This document shows positions 20,363 to 26,297 of a stretch of 64,000 nt of DNA, piece by piece. Every line of letters starts with the position of its first letter. The first letter of the stretch is position 1. The stretch comes from Chryseobacterium gleum. Its GTDB lineage: Bacteria > Bacteroidota > Bacteroidia > Flavobacteriales_D > Crocinitomicaceae. The DNA is taken from positions 124,001 to 188,000 of the forward strand of contig CAMAXI010000004.1 in the NCBI GenBank assembly GCA_945862165.1, written 5' to 3'. The notes under the pieces are model-generated. The model was not told the origin of the DNA, made no database searches, and saw only the letters and a program-made list of their open reading frames with translations. The translations under genes were made by a program, and so were the position numbers.

Positions 20363-21190
20363 TTATAAAAACATCCAATTTATTTTGCCAGCACCAATTG
20401 TACTAATATTTTTAAAGAAATAGGAGGGCGTATATCCTGTTAGCGCTTTGAATTCTCTTGTAAGATGGGATTGATCAAAATAGTTTAGAATATAGGATAA
20501 TTCTGTCATTGAAAGTGGTTCGTTCTGCACTTGAATCTTTGCTAGTGCTTTTCGAAACCGAATAATTTTTTGATATTCTTTTGGAGATTTACATAGGTGT
20601 TTTTCGAAATGTTTAATAACTGTTTTGGGTGTTGTATTAAAATTTGTTGCTAGTTCGTTAATAGTATAGTTGTCCTTTTCGAGTTCTAAAAGAAATGGAT
20701 GTAAAAAAGGGTGATTAAAACCTGTGTGCTTGGATAAAAAATAAGTTTCAATACGTTCTAACTTTTCTTTTTCACTTAGCTTTTCGTTGAAAATTGTCTG
20801 AAAAAACTCCCTTAAGTCTTCAAATGGAAGAAATAAATTTTCAATTCCTTCTGCATATGCGTTAAGTGGTTTGTCAAGAAATGCATTAATGCCTAATGGT
20901 TTAAAGTAAATGGTGATTTCTTCTGCTGCACCTCGGTATTCGAAACAAAATGCCTCTTTAAAACGGCAAACTATAGCAGAATTAATTAGTGTGTTTTTAG
21001 CTTCTTGTATTTGATAAATGTTTTGATTCTTAACAACTTTCGTATTACTATTAATACTCCAAATACTGTTGACAGATGGGAAAGTTAAGTAACGTGTATT
21101 GGGTTCCCCTTCTTCCCTAGAAAGAAAATAAAAGCATTCGATGACAGAAGCTAATAGTTCATTAGTTGGTTTGTAAGCGTTGACTTTCAT
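20363..21190 (-). CDS. AraC-family transcriptional regulator
   Basis: The 275-residue protein has an N-terminal sensor region (1-150) of the DUF6597 type and a C-terminal AraC DNA-binding domain (about 170-270). The latter has two helix-turn-helix units, including INELATNFNTTPKTVIKHFEKHLCKSPKEYQKIIRFRKAL split by normal spacing and LSYILNYFDQSHLTREFKALTGYTPSYF. It is the fourth gene on the minus strand after the hydroxylase, ketosynthase-fusion and DUF6999 genes, 58 bases after the last, so it is a plausible regulator of that cluster. Its inducer is unknown. Confidence 0.88.
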   Translation of the reverse strand: MKVNAYKPTNELLASVIECFYFLSREEGEPNTRYLTFPSVNSIWSINSNTKVVKNQNIYQIQEAKNTLINSAIVCRFKEAFCFEYRGAAEEITIYFKPLGINAFLDKPLNAYAEGIENLFLPFEDLREFFQTIFNEKLSEKEKLERIETYFLSKHTGFNHPFLHPFLLELEKDNYTINELATNFNTTPKTVIKHFEKHLCKSPKEYQKIIRFRKALAKIQVQNEPLSMTELSYILNYFDQSHLTREFKALTGYTPSYFFKNISTIGAGKINWMFL

Positions 21191-21248: not shown

Positions 21249-22154
21249 TTAATCTGGATGATTAACTAATATCCCATCTGCATGTTGTTTTGTTTTATTC
21301 ATCACTAAAATTCGATGGAGTGTCTCCGCCGACAAACCATGTAAAACTAAGCGATACGCGGCGGTATAGGTAGTTTCTGGAACCATCGGATGTTTATTAT
21401 TTACCAAGCCTAAATGGGCAGGAGTATTCAACAAGCGGGAAGCGTAGATTGCGATCGTTTCATCCAATTGTAAACTATTGGAGGCTCTTACAAAGTCATT
21501 GGAAGTTAGAAAAAACTGGTAAAACGGGGTGAATAACTCAATTGCACTTCGAAGGTCTAACACGTTTGTCCATCTATCTGGAAAATCGATGTGGTTAAAT
21601 TTATCTTCTGTAATCATTGAATAATCTAACGCTTTGGTAGGCTGAAAAGGATTATTACCTTCAATAAGACAGGAGTTAAGTTTGATGACAAAATTGTATA
21701 AATTTAAGTCGTGACGAAGAAATATATTGTCTTTCACATCTTCAAAATCTTTCGGCTGAATTGGATCCATCGGCAACGAAACCCCTTCTACATTCGCTTC
21801 AATAAATAATAAGATTTCAGTACCAATATGAAAGTGTCTAAAAATGAGAAGATTTGCGTCTTTACTTACAAAGTATTTTAGTCCAACACTAAGTATTCTA
21901 TGCAGCATTTTAGGCGCATTAATTAGTTTTGGGAAGAAGAACTTGAACACATGAAAGCCAAACATGGTGATTTTTGAAAAAACGAAAATCAAGGGTAGGA
22001 TGTATTTTCTTGATTTTGAATCATTATCGTACATCAAAGCTGCTTTAGCACTTGGATTAATTGGAATACTATTGTCCAGATACAATGCTAACCAAGGATT
22101 TGGGTCTCTCGGGTCGTGCGTATTTAAGTCTGTAATTGGGTCTAAATTTTTCAT
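21249..22154 (-). CDS. DUF6999-like protein of unknown function
   Basis: The 301-residue protein has one hydrophobic stretch (about 50-75) and a helical body. Possible metal-ligand clusters are FRHFHIGTEILLFIEANVEG (H107, H109, E113, E119) and RHDLNLYNFV (H148, D149). I associate it with DUF6999 by its overall pattern; no enzyme activity is established. The start lies nine bases after the stop of the ketosynthase-fusion gene, so co-expression is very likely. The clustered His/Glu residues invite the idea of a third iron-dependent oxygenase in this operon, which is inference only. Confidence 0.7.
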   Translation of the reverse strand: MKNLDPITDLNTHDPRDPNPWLALYLDNSIPINPSAKAALMYDNDSKSRKYILPLIFVFSKITMFGFHVFKFFFPKLINAPKMLHRILSVGLKYFVSKDANLLIFRHFHIGTEILLFIEANVEGVSLPMDPIQPKDFEDVKDNIFLRHDLNLYNFVIKLNSCLIEGNNPFQPTKALDYSMITEDKFNHIDFPDRWTNVLDLRSAIELFTPFYQFFLTSNDFVRASNSLQLDETIAIYASRLLNTPAHLGLVNNKHPMVPETTYTAAYRLVLHGLSAETLHRILVMNKTKQHADGILVNHPD

Positions 22155-22163
22155 TGTTTTTAT

Positions 22164-24023
22164 TTAATAATTCCCTAATTCTTGCAATTGCATTTTGTAC
22201 AATTTGGCAGTAACTTTTGCAGTTTTTACTATGCGTTGCGCGATTTCAATCGTCATTTTTGGATGATCTAAGGCTTTTTCTAAATTATGAAAGTGATTTT
22301 CATCCGCCACACCATGGTAGGTAAAGAAAGAAACTTGATCATCCGATAAATGTAATTGTTTTTGCATTAATTCCCCCCAATAAGCGGCTAAACGTTTTCC
22401 TATTCCCTCGATAATAAACATGGAGCCCATTAAATCCAAAGGATTATTTTTAGATGCTTGGTTAAAAACAAACGAACTTAAGGACATCGAACCGATATTT
22501 TTATTTCCTGTTAAAATAGCTTCTAAATTCCAGCCCATCGCTACCCAATTACGTTCTAAAATCTGATAATCTTTGTGTTCTGCAGCCGAATGTTTGATAA
22601 ATGCAGAGCGTAAATCAAATAGTTCAATGTCAATATTGGATGCCGCACGGGAAATCCATTGCGAACCATCAATGACTTGTTGTCTTAAATCGTGTAATAA
22701 CAGTTTGTAATCTTCTCTGGACAAATTTCCGGAGTGAATTTTATGGATAATTGGTACGTTTAGTAATTCTGTTTCGAAGTTGATCCACACTTGTGTTAAT
22801 TGTCGTACTAACCATTCAGCTACTTCCGATGGTTGAAGTATTAATTCAGGTGCTTCCACTTCACGGATAGCCGTTTGCACTTCGTGTGTTTCAGAACTAT
22901 TGGATGGTCCAACCACTGTAAGTAACAGATAACTCGTAATAAACCTTCCACTTTCAGGAACCATGCATAGAATCTTTTGTCCAGCTTTTAATTTTCCGGA
23001 ATAAAGTAATTCTTCCAACATAATATAGATGGATGCAGATCCCGTATTTCCTTTTGTTTTTAAATTACTAAACCATTTTTCTTCGGAAATATAAGCTCCG
23101 CCTTTGATTAATAAATCTTGTATTTGACCTTTGAAAAATTCAGAGGAATAATGACAACATAGAAAATCAATTTCTTCCGTTTTAAACATGCCACGATCGA
23201 TCAGTTCAAAATAATGGGTAATTCCAGTTTTTATGACATCATTTAACAATCGTACATCTTGTTTCAAATTGATTGCACCATTTGCAGACGCTTCTTCATA
23301 GGAAGGATAATCTAACCAAGTGATTTCATCTTCGTTTTTATTATCGTTTTTTCCAGTAAACATGACGACAGGATGTTCATTGGCAGAAGACTGTAAATCA
23401 ATCCATTCTATTTTTAGCGATAATTGATTTTCATGTGGCTTGTCTTGTAATACAGCTGCTCCAGCACCATCGGATAGCATCCATCTTAGGAATTCTGTGT
23501 CAAAAGGAACGTCTTTCATTCCCTGTCCATCAAAACGAGAACTTTTAAATAGGCGGGAAGCTAATTCAGAACCTAGGGCAACTGCATTTTCTTTTTTCCC
23601 ACTCGCAATGTTTAGGTACGCATTGTTTAATGCCATAACGCCACTAGCACATACACTTTGAAAACTGGCAATTTCACATTTGTTTACAGGAAGTTTTGCG
23701 TGTACCATACTGCCAAATCCAGGGATAGGTAAATCTGCTTGTGTTGTTCCGGTTGCTAATAATTGAATTTTATCTAATCGAACATTTGATTTATCAATTG
23801 CATTAATAACTGAATTTGCGGCCATGCTTGCATTGTTGATATATGTTTTTTGTGTTTTGTCAATGGCGTAATGACGTGTTTGAATTCCATTTTGTTTAAG
23901 AATTCTATGTTTTAGTTTACTAGGTTCGTTATTTATTTTTCCTAAATAGTCTTCTATTTCATCGTTATTGATTGCTGGACCAGGAAGGTGAACTCCCATG
24001 GAAGTAATATATACGTTTTTCAT
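22164..24023 (-). CDS. Ketosynthase III fused to heme-oxygenase-like di-iron domain
   Basis: Residues 1-370 form a FabH-like thiolase fold with a complete Cys-His-Asn triad: C125 in FQSVCASGV, H291 in FLCCHYSSE and N326 in TKGNTGSAS. Residues about 395-619 resemble the heme-oxygenase-like di-iron oxidase (HDO/PqqC-TenA fold) superfamily. There H570, D574 and H577 form an HxxxDxxH set, E539 sits 31 residues earlier, and H478/E482/H483 lie on the preceding ligand helix. The first part would condense or transfer an acyl chain and the second could oxidise it. The 619-residue length is about twice that of FabH. One base separates it from the hydroxylase gene, and DUF6999 follows closely. Confidence 0.88.
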   Translation of the reverse strand: MKNVYITSMGVHLPGPAINNDEIEDYLGKINNEPSKLKHRILKQNGIQTRHYAIDKTQKTYINNASMAANSVINAIDKSNVRLDKIQLLATGTTQADLPIPGFGSMVHAKLPVNKCEIASFQSVCASGVMALNNAYLNIASGKKENAVALGSELASRLFKSSRFDGQGMKDVPFDTEFLRWMLSDGAGAAVLQDKPHENQLSLKIEWIDLQSSANEHPVVMFTGKNDNKNEDEITWLDYPSYEEASANGAINLKQDVRLLNDVIKTGITHYFELIDRGMFKTEEIDFLCCHYSSEFFKGQIQDLLIKGGAYISEEKWFSNLKTKGNTGSASIYIMLEELLYSGKLKAGQKILCMVPESGRFITSYLLLTVVGPSNSSETHEVQTAIREVEAPELILQPSEVAEWLVRQLTQVWINFETELLNVPIIHKIHSGNLSREDYKLLLHDLRQQVIDGSQWISRAASNIDIELFDLRSAFIKHSAAEHKDYQILERNWVAMGWNLEAILTGNKNIGSMSLSSFVFNQASKNNPLDLMGSMFIIEGIGKRLAAYWGELMQKQLHLSDDQVSFFTYHGVADENHFHNLEKALDHPKMTIEIAQRIVKTAKVTAKLYKMQLQELGNY

Positions 24024-24024
24024 G

Positions 24025-24756
24025 TTATTTTATTTTTAATAATTTATCTAAAAGTGAACTCGCAAAGCCATAATTTTTTTTCCCTTCTACATGATGTTCA
24101 TTGTGAGAAGTAGCAAGACGAAACCAAGAAGGTCCTTCCGCTTTCCATAATCGATAGTTACAATGGCCAACGAGATTCAGCACAATACTGCTAAAAGGAT
24201 AAATAGCAATTGCTACAGGAGATAGTGGAATGAATAATGCTAAAAGTAGCGGTACCGTACTTAATAAAAGTGCTTCTACGGGATGAAAACTGTAGACAGA
24301 AAAGATGGTTGGAATTCTGGAACGATGGTGTATTATGTGAATGTTTTTCATGCACCAAGGAGTATGCATGATGCGATGGACAATAAAAAAATGTATTTCA
24401 TTCCAAATATTCAGTAATATAACACCTACAAGAACGCTTATTATCGTTGTCTTTTCAAGTGAAATAAATCCATTTCGGACAAAATAAATGATAGGCCACC
24501 CTGAAAACGCAAAAATCACAATAGAGATCAGCGAATGTTTTATTTCGAAAATAAGTTGTTTTTTAGCAACAACTTCCGGTACAATTTTATGGATGATTTT
24601 TCTTCTTTCTAATTTTTTGCAAATAAATTGAAAAAGAGTTCCTACAAAAAAGTATAAAAAAAGAAAGTAGAGAAATACTAAAATGCTTTGCGAAGCATAC
24701 GATGCAGAGTGTATGAACCAATTTATTTTAGCGTTAAGTATTTCGTTTAATTCCAT
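24025..24756 (-). CDS. Fatty acid hydroxylase / sterol desaturase family protein
   Basis: This 243-residue integral membrane protein carries the three His boxes of the di-iron fatty-acid hydroxylase superfamily: HFFIVHRIMH near 126-135 (HxxxxH...H), HIIHH near 144-148 and HNEHH near 228-232. Four or five TM helices surround them. It would hydroxylate or desaturate an acyl chain or isoprenoid at the inner membrane using O2. It is the first gene of the four-gene minus-strand cluster and directly abuts the ketosynthase fusion. The substrate is unknown. Confidence 0.88.
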   Translation of the reverse strand: MELNEILNAKINWFIHSASYASQSILVFLYFLFLYFFVGTLFQFICKKLERRKIIHKIVPEVVAKKQLIFEIKHSLISIVIFAFSGWPIIYFVRNGFISLEKTTIISVLVGVILLNIWNEIHFFIVHRIMHTPWCMKNIHIIHHRSRIPTIFSVYSFHPVEALLLSTVPLLLALFIPLSPVAIAIYPFSSIVLNLVGHCNYRLWKAEGPSWFRLATSHNEHHVEGKKNYGFASSLLDKLLKIK

Positions 24757-24844
24757 CTTACAAAAGCATAAAATAATTAGAAAATTTATTGATTTGCTAA
24801 ATTACTGTTATTCAGTTATTTTTTAAAGGTTTCAATCATCAAAT

Positions 24845-25315
24845 CTAATTACTTGAAAAAATCGAATTTAAAAATGAGACAGAAGGTACTTTAAACATGA
24901 AGCCTGGTGCAAAATAATCCTTTGAATTAATACGTCTGAATTTAGCTTCTCCACCAAACATAAAAACACCCCATAAAGCAGCTTGAAATCCTAAATCGGC
25001 TCTTTTATTTGTAATTTCGATTACTGGACCTATTGCTAAACCAAGTAGCATTCCAGCTTGTATATCCGAGTATATCCGCACTCTATCTCGTTCAATTTCA
25101 AATCCAAAATCAAGCCCTCTAGGAATTCCTCTTCCCAAAACCCATGCCGATATCTCTAATCCACCACTAATACGCTTACTGACTTTATCCTCTGATTTTA
25201 AAATGTTAATATTTATTTTTGGACCGGCAAAGAAAGCTAAATCTGATTGACCAAAATAAGATTGTGTTTGTAAATTACCCGTAATGAATAATAGAATAAA
25301 TAATAATTTTTTCAT
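24845..25315 (-). CDS. Small exported envelope protein, tandem paralogue 1
   Basis: The 156-residue protein has a signal peptide (MKKLLFILLFITGNLQTQ) and a strand-rich mature part with AGPKINI, RISGGLEISAW, DFGFEIERDRVRIYSDIQAG and SKDYFAPGFMFKVP. It reads like a small beta-barrel or beta-sandwich envelope protein. It is about 65 percent identical by eye to the gene 175 bases upstream (25491-25985); signal peptide and leader are nearly identical, so this is a tandem duplication. Its C-terminus is shorter and diverged. I do not recognise the family. Confidence 0.65.
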   Translation of the reverse strand: MKKLLFILLFITGNLQTQSYFGQSDLAFFAGPKININILKSEDKVSKRISGGLEISAWVLGRGIPRGLDFGFEIERDRVRIYSDIQAGMLLGLAIGPVIEITNKRADLGFQAALWGVFMFGGEAKFRRINSKDYFAPGFMFKVPSVSFLNSIFSSN

Positions 25316-25397
25316 TTTTAGTTAATTTAGGTTTAATCGAAAAAGACTTTCTATTTGATAGAAGACAAAAGTAGGTTGAAGGTTTAGGAGGGTATAA

Positions 25398-25460
25398 TTG
25401 TTTTTTAGCTATAACTTCCGGTACAAATTTATGTGTGATTTTTTAAAGGGTTCAATCATT
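25398..25460. repeat. Displaced copy of hydroxylase-gene sequence at a duplication junction
   Basis: TTGTTTTTTAGCTATAACTT and the following bases to about 25441 match positions 24556-24600, which lie inside the hydroxylase coding sequence, with only a few differences. The next block TTTTTTAAAGGGTTCAATCAT (25440-25460, first T shared) matches 24819-24839 downstream of paralogue 1. The join looks like a scar of the tandem duplication. Confidence 0.6.
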
Positions 25461-25490
25461 TTTTGTATGTAAAACGGAATTCGATTCTTA

Positions 25491-25985
25491 TTAATTTATT
25501 ATACCGAATTTACTAAATTCATCGTATTCATTGGATGTGCCATCACTGTGATATTGAGATGTATGAAGTGGTAGTTTTATCATGAATCCTGGTGCAAAAT
25601 AATTCTTTGAGTCGATACGTCTGTATTTAACTTCTGCTCCAATTAATGCAGCGCCCCATAAAGCAGTTTGAAATCCTAAATTGGCTCTTTTATTTGCAAT
25701 TTCGATTACTGGACCCATTGATAATCCTAGTAACATTCCAGCCTGTATATCCGCGTAGATACGTACTCTATCTCTTTCAACTTCAAATCCAATATCAGCA
25801 CCTTTAGGCATGCCATCTCCTCCCCAAGCCCATACAGATACTTCAAAACCACCGCTAATACGGTTACCTAGTTTATCATCTGTTTTTGACATGTTAAAAT
25901 TGATTTTTGGACCTGCCCAATAAGTTATCAATTGTGCTTGTAAATTACCCGTAATGAATAATAGAATAAATAATAATTTTTTCAT
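25491..25985 (-). CDS. Small exported envelope protein, tandem paralogue 2
   Basis: The 164-residue sister of the gene at 24845-25315 has the same signal peptide (MKKLLFILLFITGNLQ) and core motifs AGPKINFN, RISGGFEVSVWAW, IGFEVERDRVRIYADIQAGM and SKNYFAPGFMIKLP, with a different hydrophilic tail. The leader regions of both copies share an almost identical stretch (GTTAATTTAGGTTTAATCG followed by GACTTTCTATTTGATA), so they probably have matching promoters. Function unknown; envelope location is inferred from the signal and strand pattern. Confidence 0.65.
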   Translation of the reverse strand: MKKLLFILLFITGNLQAQLITYWAGPKINFNMSKTDDKLGNRISGGFEVSVWAWGGDGMPKGADIGFEVERDRVRIYADIQAGMLLGLSMGPVIEIANKRANLGFQTALWGAALIGAEVKYRRIDSKNYFAPGFMIKLPLHTSQYHSDGTSNEYDEFSKFGIIN

Positions 25986-26297
25986 TTTTAGTTAATTTAG
26001 GTTTAATCGTAAATAGACTTTCTATTTGATATATGACAAAAGTAGGTTGTAGATGTAGTAAGATATAATCGGATAATCAAACTGTTACGATTTAAAAACT
26101 TACTTTTTGCAAACTGCTTGATTTGGATAGCTGAATTTTAGTAATTTCTACGAAAGATCGGTAAGAATAAGTAGATAGTTGCATTTTTCGCAACTGGCAC
26201 AAACGGATGTAACTTTATATTGTTAATTTTGAGCGTGTTTATCTATTTGAAAATCAAAAGATACGTATTTGTATAGTAGTGTTATTTCTCGGAAATT
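25986..26297. promoter_or_regulatory. Divergent intergenic region with possible operators
   Basis: This 312-base gap separates the paralogue pair from the HTH gene. It holds the conserved leader copy (25986-26033) and a perfect inverted repeat AGTTGC/GCAACT at 26177-26195. A related half site TTTTTGCAAACTG lies at 26104-26116 and resembles TTTTTCGCAACTG in the right arm. These could be operators for the adjacent HTH protein. No RNA gene is seen. Confidence 0.35.

What the first reader, a model, noticed from the sequence alone, without database searches (positions are those of the whole stretch)
21249..24756. Uncharacterised iron-oxygenase operon: hydroxylase, ketosynthase fusion, DUF6999
Three adjacent minus-strand genes (gaps of one and nine bases) encode a membrane di-iron hydroxylase with three His boxes, a KAS III fused to a heme-oxygenase-like di-iron domain, and a DUF6999-like protein with clustered His/Glu residues; an AraC regulator follows. 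An acyl-condensing enzyme fused to an oxidase beside another iron oxygenase suggests a pathway to an oxidised long-chain product. I know no named product for this set.
Basis: partly seen in the sequence, partly recalled or inferred. Interest (0 to 1): 0.78.

Follow-up and report, generated by a model that had tools for sequence, protein, structure and literature searches.

The report
Ketosynthase-oxidase fusion lipid gene module
A small, patchily distributed gene set in environmental Bacteroidota joins a carbon-carbon bond-forming enzyme to an iron-oxidase-like domain in one protein, beside a protein of unknown function, and probably makes an oxidised ring-type lipid that has not been described.

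Summary
In detail: three minus-strand genes (24756-21249, gaps of 1 and 9 bases) encode a PF04116 membrane hydroxylase, a ketosynthase fused to a heme-oxygenase-like di-metal (HDO-like) domain, and a DUF6999 protein. It is a true unit. In 60 related loci plus the window, DUF6999 lies downstream in 59 of 59 loci with flank visible and the hydroxylase upstream in 44 of 55; the next commonest neighbours are in 9 and 7 loci. In 395 Bacteroidota genomes the three form nested sets (5, 4, 2 genomes). A Pseudoalteromonas plasmid carries ketosynthase, HDO-like protein and DUF6999 unfused, side by side. The AraC gene is not part of it. The ketosynthase is closest to StlD/DarB, which make alkyl-cyclohexanediones, but lies below the curated cut-offs and outside the DarB-like clade. 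The usual partner DarA was not found in the window's genome or in 20 of 22 other module genomes. Best reading: a DarB-like pathway in which the fused HDO-like domain and DUF6999 replace DarA, giving an oxidised alkyl-ring lipid. The unit is shown; the chemistry is inferred. The HDO-like domain has Asp485 in place of one canonical ligand His, and DUF6999 has no clear fold match.

The parts
24025..24756 (-). Membrane fatty-acid-hydroxylase-superfamily protein (PF04116), first gene of the unit; upstream in 44 of 55 loci, so usual but not obligatory
   Evidence: (83.5 bits, cut-off 31); 4 hydrophobic segments
22908..24023 (-). Ketosynthase domain (residues 1-372) of the fusion gene 22164-24023; closest to StlD/DarB; Cys125-His291-Asn326 triad
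   Evidence: NF005293 416.8 bits, cut-off 450; StlD 5gk2_A Z 52.4, rmsd 1.7, 368 aligned; triad in 56 of 56
22164..22871 (-). HDO-like domain (residues 385-619, to the stop) of the fusion gene; E482, E539, H570, D574, H577 kept, canonical ExxH His replaced by D485
   Evidence: PF14518 25.4 bits, cut-off 28.9; 3dde E 4.4e-7
21249..22154 (-). DUF6999 (PF22523) protein; downstream of the fusion in 59 of 59 loci with flank visible; all-helical model without a significant PDB match; conserved H107, H148, D149, D231, H272, E277
20363..21190 (-). AraC-type regulator with DUF6597 domain; adjacent but NOT part of the conserved unit

Best explanation
A compact biosynthetic module for an oxidised alkyl-ring lipid. 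The StlD/DarB-like ketosynthase loads an acyl chain on Cys125 and joins it with a second acyl thioester from primary fatty-acid metabolism to give a 2,5-dialkyl-cyclohexane-1,3-dione or close relative (inferred from family and active site). The HDO-like domain fused to it uses O2 and metal to oxidise (aromatise or hydroxylate) that product in cis, and DUF6999, a small helical protein with a conserved His/Asp/Glu set, does a second obligatory step; together they take the place of the flavodoxin-like aromatase DarA (inferred). The PF04116 membrane enzyme hydroxylates, and in some species a fatty-acid desaturase desaturates, an alkyl chain (inferred). Shown: gene identities, the conserved unit, the intact ketosynthase triad, the fused and unfused forms, no DarA match in most module genomes. 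Inferred: substrates, order of steps, product.
For: Unit: DUF6999 downstream 59 of 59, hydroxylase upstream 44 of 55; a desaturase (PF00487) directly behind the fusion in 9 of 61 loci; the next commonest cluster is in 7 loci. Whole-genome co-occurrence in 395 Bacteroidota genomes: DUF6999 in 5, HDO-like domain (E<=1e-10) in 4, module-type hydroxylase (E<=1e-40) in 2, nested. Unfused KS + HDO + DUF6999 side by side on Pseudoalteromonas plasmid pTHAF3_a, 44% identity over 95% of the fusion. Ketosynthase: best PDB relative StlD; triad in 56 of 56. A related ketosynthase in Streptomyces plasmids (46% identity) sits beside a DarA-like protein, so this branch of the tree includes a cyclohexanedione/resorcinol-type context. 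No DarA match (E<=1e-5) in the window's genome and 20 of 22 other module genomes; the 2 with DarA carry it beside a separate DarB. DarB chemistry: PMC4578411, part 1 of 3 read; DarA named DAR-aromatase in PMC3949708, passages seen.
Against: No product is known. The ketosynthase falls under the curated cut-offs of NF005293 (416.8 vs 450) and DarB (366.5 vs 550), so its reaction may have changed. The HDO-like domain is under the PF14518 cut-off and has Asp485 where the canonical members aligned here have the ExxH histidine, so oxidase activity is not assured. In one genome (G275) a shortened DUF6999-like ORF (PF22523 match with one stop inside) sits beside an StlD-type ketosynthase, with no HDO match at E<=1e-10 in that genome, so the HDO step is not always coupled. 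No redox-partner gene recurs next to the unit. The 185-aa His-rich membrane protein of Pseudoalteromonas is not detectably homologous to the hydroxylase. An AMP-binding ligase recurs within 6.1 kb in 5 loci, on the other strand, 4 of them close syntenic relatives, and an SDR in 7 loci 3.5-6.3 kb away; I take both as flanking genes, but a wider pathway is not excluded.
Confidence: 0.42

Rival explanations
1. The ketosynthase does an OleA/PpyS-like head-to-head condensation of long acyl chains and the HDO-like domain cleaves or desaturates the beta-keto product (as UndA does fatty acids), giving a ketone, olefin or pyrone; DUF6999 and the hydroxylase tailor it.
For: OleA chains are among the structural neighbours of the ketosynthase model (Z about 36); the HDO family includes the fatty-acid decarboxylase UndA (PMC13108848, abstract and section 4); no ACP gene recurs near the unit, as with enzymes fed by primary metabolism.
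Against: StlD is far closer (Z 52.4, 41% identity) than OleA. PpyS and OleA need a Glu base 24-26 residues before the Cys (PMC4578411); at that spacing the fusion has P99/P101, P101 in 56 of 56. This is a spacing argument, not a structural alignment to OleA.
Confidence: 0.2
2. The HDO-like domain is not an oxidase but a metal-free or structural/regulatory partner of the ketosynthase; the real oxidations come from the membrane hydroxylase and DUF6999.
For: Canonical ligand His replaced by Asp485 in 56 of 56; PF14518 score below cut-off.
Against: E482, E539, H570, D574, H577 and two further His (H478, H483) are invariant in 56 of 56; the first five are also kept in the unfused Pseudoalteromonas protein and in the two canonical PF14518 members aligned, which a dead domain would not need.
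Confidence: 0.15
3. The ketosynthase supplies an ordinary acyl-chain step of membrane-lipid modification (e.g. hydroxylated amino-lipids), with no ring formed.
For: The hydroxylase has a weak OlsE (ornithine lipid hydroxylase) match (E 1.1e-4, 21.6 bits, cut-off 475); a desaturase joins in 9 of 61 loci.
Against: Beyond the desaturase, no gene cluster recurs in more than 7 of the loci (the clusters were not all annotated); the ketosynthase is StlD-like, not FabH-like.
Confidence: 0.13
4. It is an ordinary flexirubin/dialkylresorcinol cluster.
For: StlD/DarB-like ketosynthase in a Bacteroidota genome.
Against: No DarA match in the window's genome; the fusion ketosynthases separate from the nine DarB-like rows with support 100; the Zobellia and Aureibaculum genomes hold both this module and a separate DarA-DarB pair.
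Confidence: 0.03

Closest known systems
StlD / DarB ketosynthases (bacterial stilbene, dialkylresorcinol, flexirubin pathways)
   Same: Fold and 41% identity to StlD over 368 residues; Cys-His-Asn triad
   Different: Under both curated cut-offs; outside the DarB-like clade; fused to an HDO-like domain; no DarA partner
HDO superfamily (UndA, SznF, CADD, BesC; PF14518)
   Same: Helical C-terminal region with E, E, H-xxx-D-xx-H positions; profile match to 3dde, E 4.4e-7
   Different: ExxH His replaced by Asp485; PF14518 under cut-off; fused to a ketosynthase; neighbours unlike the AMP-binding/SDR operon of the two canonical members seen here
Unfused ketosynthase-HDO-DUF6999 genes, Pseudoalteromonas sp. 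THAF3 plasmid
   Same: Same three parts in the same order
   Different: Ketosynthase and HDO-like protein are separate genes; the upstream gene is a different 185-aa His-rich membrane protein
PF04116 membrane hydroxylases (OlsE and relatives)
   Same: PF04116 over cut-off, three His boxes
   Different: Own subfamily: at E<=1e-40 found in 2 of 395 genomes, both with the module
DUF6999 (PF22523)
   Same: 377.6 bits
   Different: No function in print found: 0 papers with the name in the library searched

Membership tests
StlD/DarB ketosynthase subfamily (NF005293; DarB NF053539) | Score over the curated cut-off | tested here: not met
   416.8 vs 450 and 366.5 vs 550 bits
StlD/DarB ketosynthase subfamily (NF005293; DarB NF053539) | Cys-His-Asn catalytic triad and StlD-like fold | tested here: met
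   C125/H291/N326 in 56 of 56; StlD Z 52.4, rmsd 1.7, 368 aligned, on a predicted model
StlD/DarB ketosynthase subfamily (NF005293; DarB NF053539) | Makes a cyclohexane-1,3-dione | not testable with these tools
   needs enzyme assay
Dialkylresorcinol/flexirubin cluster | DarA aromatase next to the ketosynthase | tested here: not met
   No DarA match (E<=1e-5) in 21 of 23 genomes incl. the window's own; the 2 others carry it beside a separate DarB
HDO (PF14518) | Score over Pfam cut-off | tested here: not met
   25.4 vs 28.9 bits
HDO (PF14518) | 3 His / 3 carboxylate ligand set (as in PMC13108848 section 4) | tested here: not met
   E482, E539, H570, D574, H577 present, the ExxH His is D485, by sequence alignment only; whether H478 or H483 stands in is unknown
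HDO (PF14518) | Binds two metals, activates O2 | not testable with these tools
   needs protein
PF04116 fatty acid hydroxylase superfamily | Score over cut-off and three His boxes | tested here: met
   83.5 vs 31 bits; boxes in 44 of 44
OlsE ornithine lipid hydroxylase | Score over NCBIfam cut-off | tested here: not met
   21.6 vs 475 bits
DUF6999 (PF22523) | Score over cut-off, full length | tested here: met
   377.6 vs 27 bits, positions 1-274 of 275
OleA/PpyS head-to-head ketosynthases | Glu base 24-26 residues before the active Cys | tested here: inconclusive
   P99/P101 at that spacing, P101 in 56 of 56 (feature from PMC4578411); no residue alignment to OleA made

The most novel reading that the evidence does not exclude
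DUF6999 is a previously unrecognised metalloenzyme fold that, with an HDO-like domain fused in cis to the ketosynthase, replaces the flavin aromatase of the DarB/StlD pathway: an O2- and metal-dependent route to a new class of oxidised alkyl-ring lipids, shared by Bacteroidota and Gammaproteobacteria.
Probability: 0.25. Interest if true: 0.82.

Novelty: new variant of a known kind. Interest (0 to 1): 0.62.

Why it matters
It gives a sharply defined, testable gene set (two to four genes) for an undescribed lipid or pigment found across several Bacteroidota families, including named genera such as Zobellia, Cellulophaga, Cyclobacterium, Fulvivirga and Muricauda (record titles). It would give DUF6999 a first function, add a ketosynthase-coupled reaction to a superfamily with about a dozen characterised members (PMC13108848 section 4), and show how one pathway can swap its oxidant.

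Tried and rejected
Ordinary flexirubin cluster: rejected (no DarA, separate clade). AraC as part: rejected. DUF6999 fold: Foldseek gave 0 matches with E<=0.001; VIA-align 2 gave best Z 4.5, to GPCR-type helical bundles, among 887 chains aligned; I take this as a common helical arrangement, and a new fold is not thereby shown. The Streptomyces neighbour protein was tested as an HDO or DUF6999 relative and showed no match; it matches DarA. The Pseudoalteromonas 185-aa membrane protein is not detectably homologous to the hydroxylase. A displaced hydroxylase elsewhere in the genome: of the 11 loci without an adjacent one, 10 (in 9 genomes; L073 not included) were searched; only matches of 27-33% identity were found, in 6 of 9 genomes. 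Viral contigs: 0 relatives of DUF6999. First ketosynthase tree was spoiled: 5 DarB-like rows had been translated on the wrong strand; redone as a quick tree with 30 of the 56 full-length fusion rows. Read without use: PMC11965152 (term search in the text found 0 passages), PMC9248904 (passages on flexirubin clusters only), PMC13232832 (passages; an HDO tied to desiccation tolerance).

Paper searches bearing on a ketosynthase-HDO link, DUF6999 or this pathway. Nothing describing this gene set was in the listings I saw; two searches listed only 20 of 1,369 and 20 of 63 papers, and the library holds open-licence PMC papers only.

Rows left out of the counts. Of 61 loci (60 plus the window), upstream was not visible (under 750 bases) in 6 and downstream (under 1,000 bases) in 2. 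The 56-row fusion counts leave out L053 and L071 (cut by a contig edge), L073 (ketosynthase residues 1-146 run straight into the HDO part) and L038 and L039 (late start calls). L043 has its DUF6999 in two pieces and was counted as present in the 59. The scan finds only loci that match two short peptide patterns, so it is not a census; searches score a limited number of first-look candidates per genome (e.g. 7 of 13), so a miss is possible.
Full report
WHAT IS THERE. Three minus-strand ORFs stand head to tail: 24025-24756, 22164-24023 and 21249-22154, with gaps of 1 and 9 bases. Pfam and NCBIfam scans give a PF04116 membrane hydroxylase, a ketosynthase joined to an HDO-like domain, and a DUF6999 protein. 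The AraC gene behind them is real, but its protein has no match at E<=1e-5 among the other ORFs of the 65 loci compared. The window lies in a 2.89 Mb genome rated 99.97% complete.

IS IT A UNIT. A pattern-based scan of genome contigs with the HDO part returned 60 loci, all Bacteroidota by their record titles, at 58-97% identity. I called ORFs and clustered them by blastp across these loci, the window and 4 DUF6999 loci. Where the flank is long enough, DUF6999 is downstream in 59 of 59 (in L043 in two pieces) and the hydroxylase upstream in 44 of 55, all on the fusion's strand; 34 of the 44 upstream gaps are -4 to +6 bases. A fatty-acid desaturase (PF00487) follows the fusion directly in 9 of 61 loci, before DUF6999 in the 8 where DUF6999 is in view. 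The next commonest clusters are in 7 loci (an SDR, 3.5-6.3 kb away, both sides), 6 and 5; one of the latter is an AMP-binding ligase on the other strand, 4 of its 5 loci being syntenic relatives. In an even sample of 395 Bacteroidota genomes DUF6999 occurs in 5, the HDO-like domain (E<=1e-10) in 4 of those 5, and the module-type hydroxylase (E<=1e-40) in 2 of those 4. The fifth DUF6999 genome (G275) has a shortened DUF6999-like ORF next to an StlD-type ketosynthase and no HDO match.

UNFUSED FORM. A Pseudoalteromonas plasmid has a separate ketosynthase (366 aa), HDO-like protein (226 aa) and DUF6999 (280 aa) in a row, behind a 185-aa His-rich membrane protein. Together the first two match 95% of the fusion at 44% identity. 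Two proteins separate in one phylum and fused in another are commonly partners. This is a single record; no other plasmid record showed a DUF6999 match.

THE KETOSYNTHASE. Closest solved relative is StlD (41% identity, Z 52.4, rmsd 1.7 A over 368 residues of the model). The triad C125-H291-N326 is invariant in 56 of 56 full-length fusions. It scores 416.8 bits against NF005293 (StlD/DarB), below the 450 cut-off. In a quick maximum-likelihood tree of 42 rows, the fusion ketosynthases group with the Pseudoalteromonas and Streptomyces ones, apart from nine DarB-like rows, with support 100. In the 44-row tree with two FabH rows the fusion side is kept (100) but the DarB-like rows are not one clade. 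The Pseudoalteromonas row falls beside the fusion L076 (support 83-88), so which of fused and unfused is older is open, and long branches meet. The Streptomyces gene stands beside a DarA-like flavoprotein (26% identity, E 2e-41). No DarA match was found in the window's genome or in 20 of 22 other module genomes; the two that have it (those of L042 Zobellia and L023 Aureibaculum) carry it beside a separate DarB. A further search of six handles found it only in G238, at the same coordinates as one of those two.

THE HDO-LIKE DOMAIN. PF14518 matches residues 523-609 at 25.4 bits, below cut-off; a profile of 15 rows finds the HDO-fold protein 3dde at E 4.4e-7. Alignment with two canonical members from Citrobacter and Vibrio plasmids places E482, E539, H570, D574 and H577 on shared columns, but the histidine of the ExxH motif is D485, in 56 of 56. 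H478 and H483 are invariant in the same 56 and may stand in. So it resembles an HDO but fails two membership tests; how it works is open. That these columns are the metal ligands rests on my recall of UndA and CADD; no call aligned to those proteins.

DUF6999. The model (35 rows, mean pLDDT 81.4, pTM 0.82) is all helical. Foldseek gives no PDB match with E<=0.001; the best VIA-align Z is 4.5, to GPCR-type bundles. Across eight rows including Pseudoalteromonas and the G275 ORF, invariant residues include R106, H107, H148, D149, D200, N226, D231, N253, H272, E277; all are 60 of 60 in the Bacteroidota set. Three His and several carboxylates spread over four predicted helices suggest a metal site; I had no coordinates to measure, so this is inference.

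HOW IT PROBABLY WORKS. DarB-type ketosynthases build 2,5-dialkylcyclohexane-1,3-diones from a beta-ketoacyl and an alpha,beta-unsaturated acyl thioester (PMC4578411, part 1 of 3 of the text read), and DarA is called the DAR-aromatase (PMC3949708, passages). This module keeps a ketosynthase of that type, lacks DarA, and adds in cis an HDO-like domain and in trans DUF6999. The simplest reading is that these do the oxidation, and that the membrane hydroxylase and optional desaturase act on the alkyl chains. No other gene is tied to the unit, so substrates probably come from primary fatty-acid metabolism and the product may stay in the membrane. Substrate, order and product are unproven.

KNOWN OR NEW. 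In nine open-literature searches the listings I saw held no paper on this gene set; the word DUF6999 occurs in none of the 5.39 million papers held. The HDO review PMC13108848 (sections 4 and 11 read) speaks of about a dozen characterised members, and those sections name no ketosynthase fusion. I class it as a new variant of a known kind (DarB-like pathway with other oxidants), not as a member of the DarB, flexirubin or HDO families proper.

Noticed in passing
window 24556-26069: Two tandem paralogous secreted-looking proteins of 156 and 164 aa (24845-25315, 25491-25985); the spacer between them holds an 89% copy of 46 nt of the hydroxylase gene and a 92% copy of 25 nt from before it, so a duplication unit once seems to have included the start of the hydroxylase gene.
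   Followed up: partly
L085 4859-9025; L086 4856-9007: Citrobacter and Vibrio plasmids carry the same gene row: thermostable hemolysin family gene, AMP-binding, canonical HDO, SDR, hypothetical.
   Followed up: no
L082 6621-7178: 185-aa His-rich membrane protein without Pfam match, one base before the Pseudoalteromonas ketosynthase; perhaps a functional stand-in for the hydroxylase.
   Followed up: partly
L101 1821-3633: Bacteroidota genome G275 with a shortened DUF6999-like ORF next to an StlD-type ketosynthase and no HDO-like match.
   Followed up: partly
L083 8706-18282: Streptomyces cluster on a 54,954-base linear plasmid typed mobilizable: StlD-like ketosynthase, DarA-like protein, aromatic hydroxylase, SCP2, P450; a likely dialkylresorcinol-type cluster.
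   Followed up: partly
L097 4995-6131; L098 5001-6143: Bacteroidales plasmids (Prevotella, Phocaeicola) carry an StlD/DarB-type ketosynthase beside a TetR regulator, with no DarA annotated in the stretch shown.
   Followed up: no
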